In this document: positions 2,291-17,539 of the stretch, in pieces
How the letters are laid out: every line of letters starts with the position of its first letter
Numbering within the stretch: the first letter of the stretch is position 1
DNA from: Bacteroidales bacterium
Lineage (GTDB): Bacteria; Bacteroidota; Bacteroidia; Bacteroidales; UBA10428
Assembly: GCA_016926235.1 (NCBI GenBank)
Contig: JAFGOZ010000207.1
Location: 1 to 47,891 of the forward strand
Reading direction: 5' to 3'
Length of the DNA: 47,891 nt
Made by a program: the position numbers and the translations under genes
The notes under the pieces: model-generated
Database searches by the model: none
Seen by the model: the letters and a program-made list of their open reading frames with translations, nothing else
Told to the model about the DNA's origin: nothing

Positions 2291-2535
2291 AGCTACTAAT
2301 ACCCTTCCCAAATCCATCTTGCAGGTAAGGAGGGAATGAACCAATAACAGTTTTGAGTTTTGATGGCAATTTATCCACTTCACTGATTGCAATTAATGGC
2401 GTTAAATATTAGTAATTCTAATTATCATCGACTTATATCTTTCGTGGTTTAACAAAGAAATGAATACGTAAGCAAAAACCTTCCTTAAAACTTATATTGG
2501 CATTATTCTTGTTTTATATACAGAAAAGCCTGCAT

Positions 2536-3948
2536 ATGAAATATATTATTATCATAGTAGCAGTAATTCTGTTAGGTGATATATCTATTTCACAAACGAA
2601 AAACAATAAAAAAATTATAAAAACAGACCTCATCACAAATATGGTGGTTCGTTATGATCCAGATATATTGCGTATTCCGGGAAATACTTTGCCTATTGGA
2701 ATCACATCTGTAATGAATAATGATGAAATAATCCAGACAAAAGGATATCTTGAAGGTGAAACAAAATGGAGGAATTATAAGGTAAAGGTCGATGGAGGAT
2801 ATTTTTTGTGGGGGAAAATACATCTTTCCTGGGATGATTTGTATAAAAAGGGTGAAGGATTTAACGTAATGATATACTCGAGGAAAGGCAAAGAATTGCT
2901 TCACTCACAGAGGATTTCTTATAATTATGAAACAGATATTTTACTATATACTATAGGTGGATTTGTCAAAGCGCCCGGATTTAAGGTCGATCTTGGATAC
3001 AGGGTATTTTATGATAATGGCGTGTATCTGGATAAGTTATTTTTAGCGCCACAAGCTGATTGTTGTGGTCTTAATCATAAAACCTATGGAGGTTGTATCT
3101 GTGCAAATACACTGATTATTGATAGTGATCCTTTGAAAATAAATAACCATACTGTCAGTGTTATTGGTCATTTAAAAAAAGCACCATTTATATGCGATAC
3201 TTTACATATTATTTTGGATTATAAGGCGAGTTATAAAAAGCATGTATCTGGTTTTGGCGGTTCAGACGGTTCCTCAGGTTCAAGCGGGGTTATGGGAAGC
3301 ACCGGGTTTGATGGTCAGGATGGCGGGCATGGAAGTGACGGGTGTGACGGAAACAGGGGGCCTGATTTGGAAGTGTATGCAGATGTATATTTTGATACGA
3401 TAATCCATGAAAATCTAATGTGTGTAAATGTTAAAGAATTGGAGACAAGCAAAGATTTCAGGTATCTGCTAAATACGCAGGGAGGAAGAATGTCAATTAT
3501 AAGTAAGGGTGGTGATGGGGGAGACGGTGGCAATGGAGGTTCCGGCGGGTCAGGAGGTTCAGGTTTTAATGGAGAATTTATTACCAGGAAAGTTCAGATT
3601 AATGATACTACCTGGGTAGAGGAAACCATACAGCTTCCCGGTGGAGATGGTGGTAATGGAGGTTGTGGTGGTAATGGAGGAAATGGTGGGTATGGAGGTG
3701 ACGGAGGTAATATTTATGTGTATTATACTACTTTTGCTGCGCCTTATATGCATATGCTTGATATCCAAAGTATCTCTGGTGATGGAGGTAGCGGAGGTTC
3801 CGGGGGCAGTCGTGGAATAGGAGGTTCTGGCGGAAGTGGCAACCCCTCTGGCCGTTCTGGTAGTTCCGGTTGCTCGGGAAGTTCAGGTTCATCTGGTAAG
3901 GACGGATATCATGGTGAGGTATATTTTTATGAACTTAGTTCAGAATAG
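2536..3948 (+). CDS. Secreted collagen-like Gly-X-Y repeat protein
   Basis: I chose the ATG at 2536 because it begins a clean signal peptide (MKYIIIIVAVILLGDISISQ). An ATG 13 codons upstream would bury that signal. The 470-residue product has an N-terminal part of about 230 residues that I do not recognise. It then has four glycine-rich blocks in Gly-X-Y register (about 241-277, 325-347, 369-391 and 415-457), separated by non-repetitive beta-like segments. X/Y positions are mostly Ser, Asp, Asn or Gly, with little Pro, so a stable collagen triple helix is not assured. A flexible Gly-rich surface fibre is an alternative. Several Cys residues lie in or near the repeats. Likely exported; no T9SS sorting domain is visible. 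Function unknown. Confidence 0.75.
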   Translation: MKYIIIIVAVILLGDISISQTKNNKKIIKTDLITNMVVRYDPDILRIPGNTLPIGITSVMNNDEIIQTKGYLEGETKWRNYKVKVDGGYFLWGKIHLSWDDLYKKGEGFNVMIYSRKGKELLHSQRISYNYETDILLYTIGGFVKAPGFKVDLGYRVFYDNGVYLDKLFLAPQADCCGLNHKTYGGCICANTLIIDSDPLKINNHTVSVIGHLKKAPFICDTLHIILDYKASYKKHVSGFGGSDGSSGSSGVMGSTGFDGQDGGHGSDGCDGNRGPDLEVYADVYFDTIIHENLMCVNVKELETSKDFRYLLNTQGGRMSIISKGGDGGDGGNGGSGGSGGSGFNGEFITRKVQINDTTWVEETIQLPGGDGGNGGCGGNGGNGGYGGDGGNIYVYYTTFAAPYMHMLDIQSISGDGGSGGSGGSRGIGGSGGSGNPSGRSGSSGCSGSSGSSGKDGYHGEVYFYELSSE

Positions 3949-4040
3949 ATATTTTTAATCATCAGTAAGATAGCATGTTACGATCAATTTAGTAGTTTGG
4001 CACGCAATTTGGATTTCCATTAATAACAAACCAACAGAAA

Positions 4041-4046
4041 GGGAGG
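4041..4046 (+). promoter_or_regulatory. Strong Shine-Dalgarno site of the DUF4476 gene
   Basis: GGGAGG lies 6 nt before the ATG at 4053. Most genes in this window have A-rich leaders with no recognisable Shine-Dalgarno site, as is usual in Bacteroidota, so this site is unusual and fixes the start. Confidence 0.6.
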
Positions 4047-4052
4047 TTTATC

Positions 4053-4730
4053 ATGAAAACAATAATGAAAATCTGGACAATGATTTCTTTATTTGGCTTG
4101 ATGAATGGTCAAAAAGGAAATGCTTCTGAGTTGCAACTCAGTATGTGGAACAATAGTGGTTTCTCTGTAAAAGTTGATCATCGCTATTATAGTGTTACAT
4201 CTCATGATTTGATTATTAACAATTTACAAGCGGGTAATCATTATATTGTTGTTTATCAACCTATATTTAATCACAATGGAAGAAGGATAAGCGAAAGACT
4301 GGCATACAGCGGATATATCAACATTCCTGCAGAATCAATGGTGACTGCAACGGTTGACAGAAGGAATTTGTTAAGTATAGTAAGTATTGTGCCTCATCAT
4401 CATTATACGGTCAGAAATAATCACCATTACGATATGGCAATGAATCCTGCCGAATTCAGAAATATGAAAAAAAGGCTTATAAATACCCGTTTTGAATCAG
4501 AAAAAAGGAACATTTTAGAATATCAGATAGAATATAATTTCTTTTCATCGCAACAAGTATTTGAAATGGTAAGCTTGTTAGATTTCGAATCAGACAGGCT
4601 TGAGATAGCTAAAATGGCTTATCATAAAACAATTGATAAACATAACTTCGATATTGTTTTTGAAGCATTTCAGTTTTCGACCAGTGTGATAAAACTCGAA
4701 AGATATATTGCAAAATGCGAATATAGATAA
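4053..4730 (+). CDS. Secreted DUF4476 domain protein
   Basis: The 225-residue protein opens with a signal peptide (about 1-25). A beta-rich segment (27-112) follows that resembles the small PEGA-like domain often found in this family. A His-rich linker (PHHHY, NNHHY; 114-126) leads to a helical C-terminal region (about 131-222) matching DUF4476, with its pattern of short helices and the YNFFSSQQVFEMVSLLDFES core. DUF4476 proteins are common, uncharacterised exported proteins of Bacteroidota. It lies about 100 nt after the collagen-like gene on the same strand and is followed by a good terminator, so the two may be co-transcribed. Function unknown. Confidence 0.75.
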   Translation: MKTIMKIWTMISLFGLMNGQKGNASELQLSMWNNSGFSVKVDHRYYSVTSHDLIINNLQAGNHYIVVYQPIFNHNGRRISERLAYSGYINIPAESMVTATVDRRNLLSIVSIVPHHHYTVRNNHHYDMAMNPAEFRNMKKRLINTRFESEKRNILEYQIEYNFFSSQQVFEMVSLLDFESDRLEIAKMAYHKTIDKHNFDIVFEAFQFSTSVIKLERYIAKCEYR

Positions 4731-4754
4731 AAAGTTACAGTAACCAGGTGAAAT

Positions 4755-4785
4755 AAAAGCTGCTCAATATTGGGCAGCTTTTTTT
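4755..4785 (+). terminator. Rho-independent terminator after the DUF4476 gene
   Basis: A 9-bp stem (4755-4763 with 4774-4782, AAAAGCTGC/GCAGCTTTT) with a 10-nt loop is followed by an uninterrupted T run to 4785. It is well placed to end transcription of the DUF4476 gene and insulate the hydrogenase-like gene. Confidence 0.9.
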
Positions 4786-4932
4786 GAATCGGATAGCAAA
4801 AATAAAATTTATCAAGTATATAGGTAAGCAAAATCATTTATACACATTTTTAAATCACCTCGAATTATAGTACATTTATTATAAGGAGTGAGGTAGAGTA
4901 TAATATTTTGTTTAATAACCTAAACCGCAATC

Positions 4933-6798
4933 ATGAATATATTGTCGCCTGTTATTAATATTGACGAGCAGAAATGTGTTAATTGTCATGCATGCATAAC
5001 TGCTTGTCCGGTAAAATTCTGCAATGATGGAAGTGGAAATTTTATGAAAATTAACCATGACTTGTGTATTGGATGTGGTAGTTGCATTCAGGCCTGTACA
5101 CACGATGCACGCGGACCAATTGACGATTTTACTTACTTTATGAATGATCTTCAGAGAGGTCAGCCTATAGTAGCAATTGTTGCCCCGGCTGTGGCTTCAA
5201 ACTTTCCAGATCGCTATTACAATATTAACGGATGGCTGAAAAGTATCGGTGTTGAAGCAATATTTGATGTCAGCTTTGGAGCTGAACTAACGATTAAATC
5301 TTACCTTGAATATATTAAGAGCAATGGTCATGCTTCTGTTATTGCTCAACCGTGTCCGGCACTGGTAAGTTATATCGAAATATACCAGCCGGAGCTCTTG
5401 CCGTTTTTAGCTCCGGCAGACAGTCCTATGCTACATACTATAAAAATGGTAAAACGTTTTTATCCCAGGTATTCTCATCATAAATTTGCAGTAATATCTC
5501 CATGCCTGGCAAAAAAGAGGGAGTTTGAAGAAATTGGTATTGGTGATTTCAATGTAACCTTTAAATCAATTAATGACTATTTTGAAAATAATAGAATAGA
5601 CTTGTCATCTTTTCCGGAAATAGATTTTGACAATCCCCCGGCTGAGCGGGCAGTTTTATTCTCAACACCGGGCGGATTATTAACAACAGCACAACGTGAA
5701 GTGCCTGAAATTGGATCTATTACCCGTAAAATTGAAGGGAAAGAGCATATATACGATTATTTTAAGTATTTACCGGAAAATATTAAAACAGGTAAAGCTC
5801 CTTTGTTAATCGATTGTTTGAATTGTGCTATGGGATGCAATGGAGGCCCCGGAACATTGAACCAGAGCAAATCGCAGGATGAAATCGAATATCTGGTTGA
5901 GCAAAGAAAAAAAGAGATGATTAATAGGTATCAGGGTAGTAACAATGAGAAAAAGAATTATAAAAAACTAAGTAATATTATCGATCAATATTGGGAACCC
6001 GGGCTTTATGGGCGTAGCTACAGAGATTTATCAGACAATTTCAGGTTAACCATTCCTCCAGATGGGAAGATAAGGGAAATATACCGGCAGATGAAGAAGG
6101 AAACAGATAGTGATGTTTTAAATTGCAGTGCATGCGGTTATGGATCTTGCAGGGATATGGCCATTGCAATTTATAATGGTTTAAATCAAAAGTCCAATTG
6201 CCATTTTTATCAGGGTAAATCACTCATGGAAATGGCAGATAATATATCATCTACAGTAGAAAACCTGAATATAAAACTTGGGTCAATAAATGATATGGTG
6301 AAAATGTTTGATGATCTTCGTTCTGATTTTGGAAGCTTAAATTCAACTATTGAGGAACAAAAAGATTATGTAAAGGAATTCAATAAAATTGCCGAATCAA
6401 TTGAAAGTATATCGCGACAAACGAATCTACTGGCACTTAACGCAGCTATAGAAGCTGCCAGGGCAGGAGATGCCGGAAAAGGTTTTGCAGTAGTGGCTTC
6501 TGAAGTTAGGAGACTGGCAGAAAATTCGACGGGAGAGGCACAAAAAATCAAGCCAAGTTCGGTTCGTATACAAACTCTATTCAACGAAATTCTAATAAAA
6601 GTTAAAAAGGCTGCAGAAGAGTTTGCAAAAGGACAGGAGGTTAGTAAACGTGTTGCAAATGCAGTGAATGAAATACACGATTCAACTTATCATCTCCGCA
6701 AAAAATCGGAAGATATTTCTGAAAAGGAAAAATGTATAAGTGAAGATGGTTTTGATGATTATATTGAAAATGAGATAACTAAGGAATTGAAGTTTTAA
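4933..6798 (+). CDS. [FeFe]-hydrogenase H-cluster domain fused to a soluble chemoreceptor signalling domain (putative redox/H2 sensor)
   Basis: The 621-residue protein has four parts. (1) A 2x[4Fe-4S] ferredoxin: C15, C18, C21, C25 and C45, C48, C51, C55. (2) An [FeFe]-hydrogenase large-subunit domain (about 75-310) with all four H-cluster cysteines: C141 in QPCP, C191 in SPCLAK, and C298 and C302 in [11 protein letters not shown]. The proton-relay Cys that precedes the first ligand in catalytic enzymes (TSCCP) is Pro here. (3) A [4Fe-4S] domain with C398, C401, C406 and C423. (4) The methyl-accepting-protein hairpin tip (about 494-532, [17 protein letters not shown]), flanked by short coiled-coil arms. 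There is no membrane segment. Known: group C/D (HydS-like) hydrogenases are sensory. Inferred: it senses H2 or redox state and passes this to a chemotaxis-type kinase. No HydEFG maturase or CheA is in the window. Confidence 0.85.
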
Positions 6799-6930
6799 AA
6801 ATTCTTCCCGATTAATATTTTAATATTCGTTATAGGGTAAATTTGTTTTTTCTTAAATTTTTCCTTTGATACATCGAGATAAACTTTATTTTTGCCTTTA
6901 GGAAAGGATTTATAAGTAAACACATCTCGT

Positions 6931-8112
6931 ATGTTTCGGATAGCAAATATTTTCATATTCACCTTACTTTGTCTAATGACAAAAGAAATAACAGCTCAAC
7001 AGGAGAATAGTGAAACACAGCGTTGGCAAATGTTTTATGCTGCTCATGTGGGTACCCACATTAAGATTTATTCGGAATTGCCGGATCATAACCTTACTTA
7101 TTTAAACGAATTATGCTTTGCCATGCAAACGGATGGCAGCAAGGTTTGGCATCAGTTATATGGTTATCCGGTTGTTGGTGTGTCAATTTTTTATGGCTTT
7201 TTAGGCAATCCTGATATTTTTGGAAAAAATATTGCTATTTCCCCAAATATAACGTTCAGAACGAGGATATTGAAAAAATGGGTATTCCAACCTGCCTTTG
7301 GAATGGGTTTTTCGTATTTCAATTTGCCTAATGATCCGGTTACTAACCCGGATAATCTTTTGGTAGGATCGGATATTACAAATTCAAGTTATGCAAGCCT
7401 TTATTGGATTAGGAATATCCATGCCAATTGGACTGCTAAGCTTGGGATTAGCTATTTCCATTACTCAAATGGACATTACCAGCTACCAAATATAGGGCTA
7501 AACCTGCCTTCAGCCTCTATTGCTTTTGTTTACCATCCAACAACTGAACAAATTGCATTTTTGCCTGCAAGGGAAACTGGACGGGATAAAAAGCTAAAGT
7601 TTAACATTCAATTTGGGTTTGGTGCTCAGGAATTTGGCACATCAACCGGACCAATTAGTAAAAAAAGATATCCTGTTTATGTCACTTCTTTATATATATC
7701 GAAGATGTATGGCAAAATAAGTAATGTACACTTTGGTATTAGCGGAATACATTATGTGAAGTTTTATGAATATTATCTGGATAATGATCAGTTTGTTGGG
7801 GAAGAATTTAAAAAGTCAAGTGTGGTCACATTATTTCTGGCTCACGAATTTTTAGCTGGTCATATAGGTTTTGTCACTCAGGGGGGTATAAATGTTTTTG
7901 CGCCTCAGCATGGATTGAGCTATCAACTTAGCGACCGATGGATGACTCTGAGTTCATTTTTAGATAGTTATATTAGTACTAAAATAGGTTTTAACTTTTA
8001 TACATTGAATACAGACAAAAAGCTATCCAATAATTTATCTCTGGGTTTATTCTTAAAAGCCAATTTTGGCCAGGCTGATTTTGTTGAGTCAACTATTGGA
8101 TATAGATTTTAA
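6931..8112 (+). CDS. PagL-like acyloxyacyl hydrolase (lipid A 3-O-deacylase family), outer-membrane barrel
   Basis: The 393-residue protein starts with a signal peptide ending near TAQ (23) and ends in aromatic IGYRF, as expected of an outer-membrane barrel. The segment FHYSNGHYQLPNIGLN (176-191) matches the PagL active-site region, with H177 and S179 in the characteristic His-x-Ser-Asn arrangement. PagL enzymes remove the 3-O acyl chain from lipid A at the outer membrane. At 393 residues it is far longer than classical PagL (about 150-170), like other Bacteroidota members with extra barrel strands. I cannot confirm the catalytic acid. It lies 132 nt after the hydrogenase-like gene and probably has its own promoter. 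Confidence 0.7.
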   Translation: MFRIANIFIFTLLCLMTKEITAQQENSETQRWQMFYAAHVGTHIKIYSELPDHNLTYLNELCFAMQTDGSKVWHQLYGYPVVGVSIFYGFLGNPDIFGKNIAISPNITFRTRILKKWVFQPAFGMGFSYFNLPNDPVTNPDNLLVGSDITNSSYASLYWIRNIHANWTAKLGISYFHYSNGHYQLPNIGLNLPSASIAFVYHPTTEQIAFLPARETGRDKKLKFNIQFGFGAQEFGTSTGPISKKRYPVYVTSLYISKMYGKISNVHFGISGIHYVKFYEYYLDNDQFVGEEFKKSSVVTLFLAHEFLAGHIGFVTQGGINVFAPQHGLSYQLSDRWMTLSSFLDSYISTKIGFNFYTLNTDKKLSNNLSLGLFLKANFGQADFVESTIGYRF

Positions 8113-14312: not shown

Positions 14313-14930
14313 CTATGCTGCCACAATTCCATTTTCTATCAGATAAACATTCATTGCTTGTATCAGTTCATCAAAGGCTTCTTCTTTTAAAAGTAATACG
14401 ATGCTTCCGCTAATATCTAATTCATTGATTGTAAAGATGGTTTGAGCAAGCAGATATCTTGATTTGGCGTCCCTTTCCCTCTTTAACAGTAAGTTAGTAA
14501 GGCTTCCTTCATAAAAAATGGGGACGGAATAGTCCAAATGGAAATATATATTATTACTTATTGTTCCCAGAATGGAATTAATAATAATATTACCTACTTC
14601 TTTTATGGAATCAATAATTACATATTGTGTAAGGGTGGTGTTAGGTGCAGATATTTTTGAAACAAGTGTTTTTGTGCTTTCATGAGGTATAATTATTTGG
14701 GCGCTTCCGGCAATATGCCCGTGAAATGGCAGATATATAACATCAAGTTTTTTATTGCCAAAAGACTGAATGTGCTTCTCCATATCTTTATACTGGAGTA
14801 TTTCAACTTCAGGTACCTCCAATTTAATATGGGAACTAAGCATAGCATTCAGTATGTAACTGCCGTTTCCAACTCCCAGGTTAACAAGCTCCTTTAGCAA
14901 ATCAATATATTTATCTTCTATCTGATACAT
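14313..14930 (-). CDS. cheC: CheC-type CheY-P phosphatase
   Basis: The 205-residue protein carries two perfect copies of the CheC/CheX active-site motif (D/S)-x3-E-x2-N-x22-P: D10-E14-N17-P40 and D107-E111-N114-P137. Both are embedded in the expected helix sequence (KELVNLGVGN and IKEVGNIIIN). CheC dephosphorylates CheY-P and, in some bacteria, binds CheD. A cheY-like gene ends 6 nt upstream, so its likely substrate is encoded next door. No CheD, CheA or CheW is visible here. In a probably non-flagellate bacterium it may serve a non-chemotactic phospho-relay. Confidence 0.85.
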   Translation of the reverse strand: MYQIEDKYIDLLKELVNLGVGNGSYILNAMLSSHIKLEVPEVEILQYKDMEKHIQSFGNKKLDVIYLPFHGHIAGSAQIIIPHESTKTLVSKISAPNTTLTQYVIIDSIKEVGNIIINSILGTISNNIYFHLDYSVPIFYEGSLTNLLLKRERDAKSRYLLAQTIFTINELDISGSIVLLLKEEAFDELIQAMNVYLIENGIVAA

Positions 14931-14936
14931 TTTATA

Positions 14937-15323
14937 TTATTGGTGTATTGCTAATACTTTTTCTAGTTCAGTAATAATTTGATCTTCTCTTGCAGGTTTG
15001 TTGATAAATGCTTTTGCTCCAAGTTCCATACAAGAACTTTTAGTGGTTTGTTGAATATCGGCAGATATAATTATAACCGGTATTCGTTTTCCTTCCTGTT
15101 TGAGAGCATTTAAAAATTCAAAACCATTCATTACAGGCATTAGAATATCCAGAATTATGCAATCCGGTTCAATATCATTAAGTTTTTTTAGTGCTTCGGC
15201 ACCATCATTTGCTTCTTCAATTGAAAAATCATTTAATTCCAGAATATTTCTTAAATATTGTCGAGTGTTCCATGAATCATCAACAATTAGAATACTCTTT
15301 TTTGTATCGTTAAGATGGCTCAT
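14937..15323 (-). CDS. Single-domain response regulator (CheY-like)
   Basis: The 128-residue protein is one receiver domain. The acidic pocket is D15/D16, the phospho-acceptor D59 (in CIILDILMP), the switch Ser S87 and the conserved Lys K109 (in NKP). It has no output domain, so it works by protein-protein contact. It lies between the SpoIIE-type phosphatase gene (71 nt upstream) and cheC (6 nt downstream) on the same strand, and is the obvious CheC substrate. The kinase that phosphorylates it is not in this operon. Confidence 0.93.
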   Translation of the reverse strand: MSHLNDTKKSILIVDDSWNTRQYLRNILELNDFSIEEANDGAEALKKLNDIEPDCIILDILMPVMNGFEFLNALKQEGKRIPVIIISADIQQTTKSSCMELGAKAFINKPAREDQIITELEKVLAIHQ

Positions 15324-15394
15324 TTTATGGGTTATTTATTAAACTTCAAAGAAAGCAGTTTGTTCTGATTAATAAAAAATATTTGACGAAACGC

Positions 15395-17539
15395 CTAAAT
15401 TCTTACACCAATTATAAGCATATCGTCAATTTGTTCATAGTTTTTCATCCAATTATTCATTACTACGGATAAAATTTGTTTTTGTTCCTCCATCGGCTTA
15501 TTATAATTTTCCAAAAATAACTTCTGAAGGTTTTTGGGATAGAATTTTCTTGGTTCGGAACCACCAAACTGATCCTGATACCCGTCAGAGAATATATAAA
15601 ATGTAGTTACCTTATTCAGGCTTATAGTATGTTTTACAAAGCGAAAATCTTCTTCAAGCTTAAGTACTCCAACTGAATAGGGATCACCTGCAATCCGGTA
15701 TAATTCATTATCCTGAATATAAATAAGAGGATTTTTAGCACCAGCATACTCTAATGTTTTATTTACTTCATCAATGCAACATATAGCAGCATCCATTCCG
15801 TCGTAAATATCTTCATCAACGAGCCGCATACTTTCTCGAAAACTATGGTGCAGTTTGAGTAATATTTCATCCGGTGAGGTAATTCCCTGTAAGTTTATAA
15901 CAGAGTTAAGAAGATCATTGCCGATCATACTCATATATCCTCCTGGCACCCCATGTCCGGTACAATCTACTGCTGCAATTATCTTTTTCTCATGTCTGTC
16001 CGAATACCAGTAGAAGTCCCCTGAAACCAGGTCCAAAGGCTTAAAATAGATGAATATGTTAGGCAAGCTTTTCTTTATAGAGTTTATATCTGTGAGAATG
16101 GCCTTTTGAATATTTTGCGCATACCTGATACTGTCTGTGATATGCATATTCTTTTCTTCAATGATATCTTTCTGTTTTTTAATTTCAGCATTTGCTAGTC
16201 GTAGTTTTTCAGTTTGTTTTGCCAAAATATCATGTTGCTGTCGTATTGCATGGAACTGCTGGTTTATTTTTCTTTCAGCTTTTTTTCTTTCAGTTATGTC
16301 ATTTATAATGGTTGCAACTTGTCCATATTGGGGTTGGTAAAGCAACATTTCGTAGTACATATCAAGCTCTTTGGAATAATCCTCAATCCTAAACAAATCG
16401 CCTTGCAACGCCACTTTTATATACTTTTCATACCACTTAACACTGAAATTGATGGGAGCTTCCTTAAGCGTTTTTCCAAGGTACTTAAATGGACTATAGT
16501 CTTCGCCTATAATCTTCTGCAGTGCGCGGTTCATTTGTAAGTAATAAAAATCTATAATCTCATTATCTTTATCCAATATCATTTCCATTAGCATAAAGCC
16601 GTTTGTCATGTTGTCAAAAAGAAGTCGGTATTGTTTTTCTCTGAGTATCAATTCCTGTTCAGCATGTTTTCGCTCTGTTATATCTTGTATAAGACTGGCA
16701 ACGCCAATCACTTCCCCTTCATTATTGGTCAGGGGGGTATTGTACCATATACAAAAAATAGAATTATTTGATTTAGTAATACATGTAGTAATGTTACGTT
16801 TTCCGCCACGCTGAAATATTAGATTGTTCCATACTTCCGTAAACTGGGCAATTTCATCTTCAGGGAAAAGGAAGTCAACTGCAACCTTCATAAAGGCCTC
16901 ATTTTCATGATAACCAAAAATCTTAGTCGCGGCAGGATTCCAGTCTATTATTTGCATGTCTATGTTAAATTCAACATATGCTAATGGTGTATCATGGATA
17001 TGAAATAATAATTTTCTGTTCAGTTTTCTTAGCTCTTTTTCGGCTTTCCGCCTGTCTTTTATCTCATTTTTTAGTATTTCATTCAGTTTCTCAAGTTCCG
17101 AAGTCCTTTCAACCACAAGGTTTTCAAACTCCATACGCATTGACTCTTTAGAGTTTTTAATATCCAGATGAGTCCTTATTCTGGATAGCAATTCGGTCCT
17201 GTAGTAAGGTTTTGTTATGTAATCGACAGCTCCCATTTCAAATCCTTGTACTATACTTTCTTTATCGCCTTTGCCTGAAGTAAAAATAATGGGAATATCT
17301 TTTGTTTTACTATCATGTTTAATAGCCCTGCAAACATCAAAACCATCCATTTCGGGCATCATGATATCGAGCAGGATAAGGTCAAAATTCTCTTTCTTAA
17401 TGATTTTTAAGGCTTCATTTCCATTACTTATATGCAATGGACTATACCCAGCTCTCTCAAGAATGTTGGTAAGTAGTTTGGCATCTGTCACACTATCTTC
17501 AACCACCAATATTTTATATATGCCAATATTTCTTTCCAT
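15395..17539 (-). CDS. Response regulator with two PAS domains and SpoIIE/PP2C phosphatase output
   Basis: The 714-residue protein has a receiver domain (about 8-122; acceptor D58 in ILLDIMMP, K110), a coiled coil (about 125-170), a PAS domain (about 172-290) and a second PAS domain (about 300-425). A second long coiled coil (about 425-480) leads to a SpoIIE-type PP2C domain (about 490-714) with SGDFYWY and DCTGHGVPGG, whose Asp residues bind the metals. Such proteins dephosphorylate anti-sigma-antagonist (STAS) or similar phosphoproteins in response to phosphorylation and ligand sensing. No STAS or HPK partner is adjacent. It is the first gene of the cheY/cheC operon. Confidence 0.92.
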   Translation of the reverse strand: MERNIGIYKILVVEDSVTDAKLLTNILERAGYSPLHISNGNEALKIIKKENFDLILLDIMMPEMDGFDVCRAIKHDSKTKDIPIIFTSGKGDKESIVQGFEMGAVDYITKPYYRTELLSRIRTHLDIKNSKESMRMEFENLVVERTSELEKLNEILKNEIKDRRKAEKELRKLNRKLLFHIHDTPLAYVEFNIDMQIIDWNPAATKIFGYHENEAFMKVAVDFLFPEDEIAQFTEVWNNLIFQRGGKRNITTCITKSNNSIFCIWYNTPLTNNEGEVIGVASLIQDITERKHAEQELILREKQYRLLFDNMTNGFMLMEMILDKDNEIIDFYYLQMNRALQKIIGEDYSPFKYLGKTLKEAPINFSVKWYEKYIKVALQGDLFRIEDYSKELDMYYEMLLYQPQYGQVATIINDITERKKAERKINQQFHAIRQQHDILAKQTEKLRLANAEIKKQKDIIEEKNMHITDSIRYAQNIQKAILTDINSIKKSLPNIFIYFKPLDLVSGDFYWYSDRHEKKIIAAVDCTGHGVPGGYMSMIGNDLLNSVINLQGITSPDEILLKLHHSFRESMRLVDEDIYDGMDAAICCIDEVNKTLEYAGAKNPLIYIQDNELYRIAGDPYSVGVLKLEEDFRFVKHTISLNKVTTFYIFSDGYQDQFGGSEPRKFYPKNLQKLFLENYNKPMEEQKQILSVVMNNWMKNYEQIDDMLIIGVRI

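What the first reader, a model, noticed from the sequence alone, without database searches (positions are those of the whole stretch)
4933..6798. Soluble [FeFe]-hydrogenase/chemoreceptor fusion: a candidate H2 or redox chemosensor
Seen: ferredoxin cluster ligands, all four H-cluster Cys (C141, C191, C298, C302), an extra 4-Cys Fe-S domain and a chemoreceptor hairpin tip ([17 protein letters not shown]) in one protein with no membrane segment. The proton-relay Cys next to the first ligand is Pro. Known: HydS-like group C/D hydrogenases are thought to be sensors and lose the proton-relay Cys. Inference: the protein senses H2 or redox state and signals through a chemotaxis-type array. The hairpin arms look short (about 70 and 85 residues), near the smallest known class.
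Basis: partly seen in the sequence, partly recalled or inferred. Interest (0 to 1): 0.78.

Follow-up and report, generated by a model that had tools for sequence, protein, structure and literature searches.

The report
Hydrogenase-type iron-sulfur module on a chemoreceptor
A bacterial chemotaxis receptor carries an iron-sulfur sensing head of the hydrogenase type; hundreds of relatives exist, and some keep the head's metal-binding site in genomes where the enzyme's special cofactor apparently cannot be built, so whether such receptors sense hydrogen or general redox state is an open, testable question.

The parts
4933..6798 (+). whole gene: 621-aa ferredoxin / H-domain / Fe-S / chemoreceptor fusion
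4954..5109 (+). N-terminal two-cluster ferredoxin domain, ligands C15 C18 C21 C55 and C45 C48 C51 C25 (pairing assumed from ferredoxins, recalled), plus clade-A C30
   Evidence: Fer4-type hits; conservation
5164..5850 (+). [FeFe]-hydrogenase H-domain, residues 78-306
5350..5358 (+). L1 motif P140-C141-P142: first H-site ligand, Pro where CpI has the proton-relay Cys299
   Evidence: CpI/TamHydS comparison in PMC11803613 passages
5497..5523 (+). L2 motif S189-P-C191-L-A-K194-K-R-E197: second H-site ligand with the conserved Lys and Glu of this loop
   Evidence: role of the Lys at the [2Fe] cyanide recalled
5812..5847 (+). L3 motif D294-C295-L296-N297-C298-A-M-G-C302-N-G-G305: third and fourth H-site ligands, with clade-A extra C295
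6118..6204 (+). C-terminal 4-Cys Fe-S domain (C398 C401 C406 C423)
   Evidence: PF04060; all four Cys in 120 of 120 listed proteins of each of two searches
6202..6744 (+). chemoreceptor signalling hairpin, helices 424-510 and 512-604, starting directly at the last Fe-S ligand
   Evidence: MCPsignal E 2.9e-29; AlphaFold2 model, mean pLDDT 84
6418..6468 (+). CheA/CheW-binding type hairpin tip [17 protein letters not shown]
   Evidence: sequence; largely conserved, L500 N503 A504 E507 G512 invariant in 36 sequences

Best explanation
A cytoplasmic chemoreceptor whose input is a HydS-type (sensory [FeFe]-hydrogenase) iron-sulfur module. The ferredoxin clusters, the H-site cluster and the C-terminal cluster report the reduction state of the cell, or H2 where the full H-cluster is present. 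A change at the H-site or its clusters alters the C-terminal Fe-S domain, which sits directly at the root of a short (about 24-heptad) hairpin, and so switches CheA activity through the tip. Shown: domain order, fold match, ligand conservation, che genes in relatives' genomes and beside some copies. Inferred: the signal, the conformational step, membership of a CheA array. In the window's lineage (Bacteroidales) the H-cluster can probably be made; across the family it is apparently not required for keeping the protein. Rivals 1 and 2 below are the two finer versions of this statement.
For: Domains; fold; both domains in 120 of 120 listed hits; 16 cluster cysteines kept; CheA in 49 of 50 genomes; nine loci with a CheW-like or CheB-like gene within five genes by sequence clustering, Pfam-checked for ten neighbours of L003, L015, L024 and L049; the same module on PAS-SpoIIE and PAS-histidine-kinase outputs, which marks it as a sensor input; group-D-like pocket S189/L296.
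Against: No direct evidence of any signal. CheW co-occurrence in Bacteroidales is confounded: 10 of 10 Hyd-MCP genomes but also 12 of 14 genomes with non-MCP copies, against 106 of 393. No neighbour is shared by more than ten of the loci examined. In TamHydS the C-terminal cluster did not respond to H2 (PMC13104023 abstract). Group C2 hits in acetogens were discarded as not validated in PMC9431212 (passage).
Confidence: 0.7

Rival explanations
1. True H2 chemoreceptor: a full H-cluster binds H2, and the H2-induced state is signalled to CheA, as proposed for HydDB group C2. Maturase-less treponemes are secondary exceptions.
For: HydF and HydG in 9 of 9 Bacteroidota relatives; HydG in 23 of 24 Bacteroidales genomes with the module (G180, a partial hit without HydG or CheW, left out) against 252 of 393, p 2.4e-4 before any phylogenetic correction; group-D-like pocket, and TamHydS turns over H2 (passages).
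Against: 22 of 35 carriers in the Treponema family set lack HydE, F and G over cut-off; at least 8 changes of the maturase-less label are forced on the tree; H-module dN/dS is 0.04-0.10 in the measurable maturase-less pairs; for the MCP form alone HydG is 9 of 10, p 0.07.
Confidence: 0.42
2. Clade A senses redox through four [4Fe-4S] clusters and does not use the [2Fe] subcluster; the H-site holds only a cubane, perhaps retuned by C295.
For: Persistence and purifying selection without maturases; clade-specific C30, C295, R239, T252, R255, K266 against A, I/V/A, mostly L, mostly N, variable, mostly Q in clade B; the carrier T. succinifaciens makes formate rather than H2 from pyruvate (PMC3156407 passage).
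Against: K194 and the L2/L3 loops are conserved in both clades; canonical group A and group-B-like hydrogenase genes also persist in maturase-less treponemes, so absence of HydEFG may mean an unknown maturation route.
Confidence: 0.33
3. The protein is a catalytic hydrogenase that merely carries a relic MCP domain.
For: H-domain ligands intact.
Against: No Cys299-type proton relay, and group A pocket methionines replaced; hairpin tip largely conserved across phyla; MCP part dN/dS 0.02-0.10 in five of six measurable pairs, 0.73 in the tandem G114 pair.
Confidence: 0.05

Closest known systems
HydDB [FeFe] group C2, 'Chemotactic (putative)'
   Same: Hydrogenase-type sensor linked to a methyl-accepting chemotaxis protein; proposed H2 sensing (PMC5037454 passages)
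   Different: HydDB's classifier was not available. The window belongs to a clade with C30 and C295 found with and without HydEFG; a sister clade lacking both cysteines may be nearer to what HydDB named
Group D sensory [FeFe]-hydrogenase TamHydS
   Same: No PAS domain, C-terminal Fe-S domain, Ser and Leu in place of the two pocket methionines (passages of PMC11803613; abstract and introduction of PMC13104023)
   Different: Pro instead of Ala at the Cys299 position, Asp at the position taken as E289, and an MCP hairpin; TamHydS sequence itself not in hand
Group C sensory [FeFe]-hydrogenase TmHydS
   Same: Putative sensor with a C-terminal Fe-S domain
   Different: Has a PAS domain (PMC13104023 introduction); the window has an MCP instead
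Cytoplasmic 24H-class chemoreceptors
   Same: Short hairpin, conserved tip, no membrane segment
   Different: Hydrogenase-fold input; class assignment from modelled helix length only, class name recalled

Membership tests
HydDB [FeFe] group C2 | [FeFe] H-domain linked to a methyl-accepting chemotaxis domain | tested here: met
   Pfam PF02906 and PF00015 in one protein
HydDB [FeFe] group C2 | assignment by HydDB's own classifier | not testable with these tools
   HydDB not held
Group D [FeFe]-hydrogenase (TamHydS-like) | Ser and Leu replacing CpI M353 and M497, and no Cys at the 299 position | tested here: met
   S189, L296, P140; positions as given in PMC11803613 passages
Group D [FeFe]-hydrogenase (TamHydS-like) | proton path residues E252 and E289 | tested here: inconclusive
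   the position taken as E289 is Asp in 240 of 240; the E252 position could not be aligned with certainty
Holo [FeFe]-hydrogenase | four H-cluster cysteines | tested here: met
   81 of 81 for C141 and C191, 80 of 81 for C298 and C302
Holo [FeFe]-hydrogenase | HydE, HydF, HydG in the genome | tested here: inconclusive
   own genome not held; Bacteroidota relatives 9 of 9 with HydF and HydG; Treponema family carriers 13 of 35 with HydG and/or HydF
CheA-coupled chemoreceptor | conserved hairpin tip and helical hairpin | tested here: met
CheA-coupled chemoreceptor | CheA and CheW in the same cell | tested here: inconclusive
   own genome not held; CheA in 49 of 50 relatives, CheW in 10 of 10 Bacteroidales carriers of the MCP form
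CheA-coupled chemoreceptor | control of CheA kinase activity | not testable with these tools
   needs biochemistry

The most novel reading that the evidence does not exclude
Clade A (the window's clade, with C30 and C295) is a maturase-independent redox chemoreceptor that re-uses the whole [FeFe]-hydrogenase fold without its [2Fe] subcluster, so the 'H2 sensor' label on many such genes would be wrong; alternatively, treponemes without HydEFG build H-clusters by an unknown route.
Probability: 0.35. Interest if true: 0.75.

Novelty: new member of a known kind. Interest (0 to 1): 0.5.

Why it matters
The papers seen here still call sensory [FeFe]-hydrogenases putative H2 sensors. A large family kept with its H-site ligands in bacteria that appear to lack all three maturases would give natural apo-versions. 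One comparison, maturase-bearing against maturase-less hosts, can tell whether H2 or plain redox state is the signal. T. succinifaciens, a finished and apathogenic type strain (PMC3156407, abstract passage), is a ready test host.

Tried and rejected
Own-genome checks failed because no whole genome is held for this window. Conserved operon: none found. I expected the stand-alone modules (L124, L125, L133, L138) to sit beside chemoreceptor genes; Pfam showed GAF proteins there, three of four with HAMP, and no MCP domain. CheW co-occurrence as proof of coupling: rejected, because copies without an MCP domain show the same enrichment. Absence of HydEFG as proof of an apo protein: rejected after canonical L1/L2/L3 motifs were found in hydrogenase genes of maturase-less treponemes. 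Paper searches on this fusion found HydDB and papers citing its group C2; searches on hydrogenases without maturases or on treponemes listed nothing on maturase-less treponemes, but mostly only listings were seen, and most subscription papers are missing. Ballor 2012 on treponeme hydrogen sensors was seen only as a reference entry.

Full report

2. How common. A protein search found 4732 proteins at E <= 0.001 among 7997 scored candidates; the 120 listed (the window's own first) all carry PF02906 and PF00015. The few named ones are Bacteroidales, Prolixibacteraceae, Labilibacter, Geobacteraceae and Phycisphaerae. A second search from a treponeme copy at 36% identity (L109) listed 120 proteins (the query first), also with both domains, among them Firmicutes, Sporomusa and Desulfotomaculum-type bacteria. 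HydDB already names such a class, group C2; a survey of acetogens discarded its C2 hits as not validated (PMC9431212 passage).

3. The active site. Over the window and 80 loci, C141, C191, P140 and K194 are in 81 of 81, and C298, C302 and C295 in 80 of 81, the missing row being a piece of the broken L061; two rows (L013, L023) lack N-terminal columns. Ser189 and Leu296 stand where TamHydS has S191 and L291, replacing two methionines of CpI (passages of PMC11803613). Comparing the two lists of 120, both keep the 16 cluster ligands, P140, S189, K194, D294 and L296, apart from gaps in a few clade-B rows and one A189 in clade A. They differ at C30 (118 of 120 against 0), C295 (120 of 120 against Ile 106, Val 11, Ala 3), R239 (mostly L), T252 (mostly N), R255 (variable) and K266 (mostly Q). 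TamHydS itself could not be aligned.

4. Chemotaxis link. Of the 80 loci, 50 (in 50 genomes, the limit per call) were given to the genome searches. CheA (PF02895) was found in 49 of 50. The exception, G003, has a CheA-like protein (Hpt, HATPase, CheW, response regulator) near the gene, with CheW, CheR and CheW. Neighbours within five genes were clustered for up to 117 loci (121 held, L081-L084 dropped as duplicates; a few others repeat a place). Nine have a CheW-like or CheB-like gene: L003, L015, L024, L026, L040, L043, L047, L049 and L052; Pfam was run on ten neighbours, from L003, L015, L024 and L049 only. In 393 Bacteroidales-order genomes CheW is in 106 and in 10 of 10 carriers of the MCP form, hypergeometric p 1.5e-6; but it is also in 12 of 14 carriers of non-MCP forms only (p 5e-6). 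The co-occurrence therefore partly reflects lifestyle.

5. Modular input. Twenty-five of 393 Bacteroidales genomes hold the module: 10 the MCP form (judged by match coverage), 14 only other forms, and G180 a partial hit. Among the fetched loci are 14 long non-MCP proteins from 12 genomes (one of the genomes, G010, also has the MCP form). Twelve of the 14 were scanned: 10 end in PAS domains plus SpoIIE phosphatase, 1 in PAS plus a histidine-kinase ATPase, and 1 (L123, cut by its contig end) shows PAS only. Four copies of 463-481 aa stand alone; two were scanned and show only ferredoxin and H-domain hits. These outputs mirror HydDB's C1 (histidine kinase) and C3 (phosphatase) labels. All 20 aligned copies keep the H-site cysteines and C295.

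6. Maturases. In the 50 genomes HydF is over cut-off in 38 and HydG in 39; HydE was searched in 18 of the 50. Seven lack all three over cut-off: G023, G027, G036, G039 (a HydE-like hit at 165 bits, below cut-off), G042, G046 and G049; these are MAGs and may be incomplete. In G039 the copy follows CheB, CheR, a CheA-like kinase and a receiver protein on one strand. All nine Bacteroidota genomes (G001-G005, G008, G010, G013, G022) have HydF and HydG. In the family set of 80 genomes around G049 (completeness filter 95 asked for, values not shown) 35 hold the protein at E <= 1e-60. Thirteen have HydG and/or HydF over cut-off; 22 have neither and no HydE. Two of the 22 have HydG-model hits below cut-off (G087, G107; 172-180 bits). 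Maturases are in 10 of the other 45 (Fisher p 0.21). Two of the 22 sit on near-complete contigs: G078 (3,431,497 bp) and G117, whose 2,731,853-bp contig equals in length the T. succinifaciens 6091T chromosome (PMC3156407 passage). That paper says this strain makes formate from pyruvate, in contrast to spirochetes that make H2.

7. Selection without maturases. Of the 22 genomes, 21 keep all four H-site cysteines; in G099 (L093) residues 301-305 fall in an alignment gap. The G110 and G111 copies are broken by a frame change or a stop, and G117 has Ser at P140. The most altered clade-A pocket (T140, T189, A194) is L115, in maturase-bearing G119. On a tree of 105 modules the maturase-less label changes 13 times, at least 8 forced by well-supported branches. 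Rows left out: duplicates L081-L084, broken or truncated L013, L023 and L061, L076 (same genome as L085), loci whose genomes were not searched, and rows with 300 or fewer module residues; genomes with any one maturase counted as bearing. H-module dN/dS is 0.04-0.10 in four maturase-less pairs and 0.075-0.099 in two maturase-bearing pairs; one near-identical maturase-less pair gave 0, and three pairs were saturated.

8. The caveat that limits this. Maturase-less treponemes also keep other PF02906 proteins, with canonical motifs such as FTSCCP, MPC-x-x-K and EVMACRGGC or EIMACPGGC (L144, L145, L157, and L153 from the carrier G123) or TTSCC and EVMSC (L142 and L143 from the carriers G078 and G117, L146, L147). 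Either these too work without an H-cluster or the cluster is made by an unknown route. Giardia lacks the maturases (PMC11437800, one passage); that it keeps a hydrogenase is recalled.

9. Verdict. A known kind; chemoreceptor role well supported; signal undecided. For the window's Bacteroidales lineage the H-cluster is plausible: HydG in 9 of 10 carriers of the MCP form (p 0.07) and in 23 of 24 carriers of the module (p 2.4e-4, no phylogenetic correction).

Noticed in passing
window 14313-17539 (-): A CheX/CheC-like protein, a CheY-like receiver and a receiver-PAS-SpoIIE protein lie in a row: chemotaxis-type parts in the same window, 7.5 kb from the receptor.
   Followed up: partly
L144 (G064), L145 (G067), L157 (G070): Treponeme contigs of 2.8-3.0 Mb carry canonical group-A-like [FeFe]-hydrogenase genes while HydE, HydF and HydG searches find nothing at the thresholds used.
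   Followed up: partly
L142, L143, L146, L147: A group-B-like [FeFe] protein of about 500 aa with TTSCC and EVMSC motifs occurs in treponemes without maturases.
   Followed up: partly
L100 (G114) 3955-8100: Two Hyd-MCP genes in tandem; the H-modules are alike (dN/dS 0.10) but the MCP parts differ strongly (0.73), as if one input had been put on two outputs.
   Followed up: no
L115 (G119) 3972-6044: A copy with Thr at P140, Thr at S189 and Ala at K194 in a maturase-bearing genome: a natural H-site variant.
   Followed up: no
L124, L125, L133, L138: Stand-alone sensor modules lie directly beside GAF-domain proteins, three of four with a HAMP domain: a possible two-protein version.
   Followed up: partly
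window 4755-4785 (+): By eye, a stem AAGCTGC/GCAGCTT with a 10-base loop and a T run between the upstream gene and the receptor gene, a possible terminator; the scan did not list it, as it stops at 8-base loops.
   Followed up: no
window 2497-3948 (+): A 483-aa protein with long Gly-Ser-rich stretches; the only Pfam hit is Collagen at 19.4 bits, below its cut-off.
   Followed up: no
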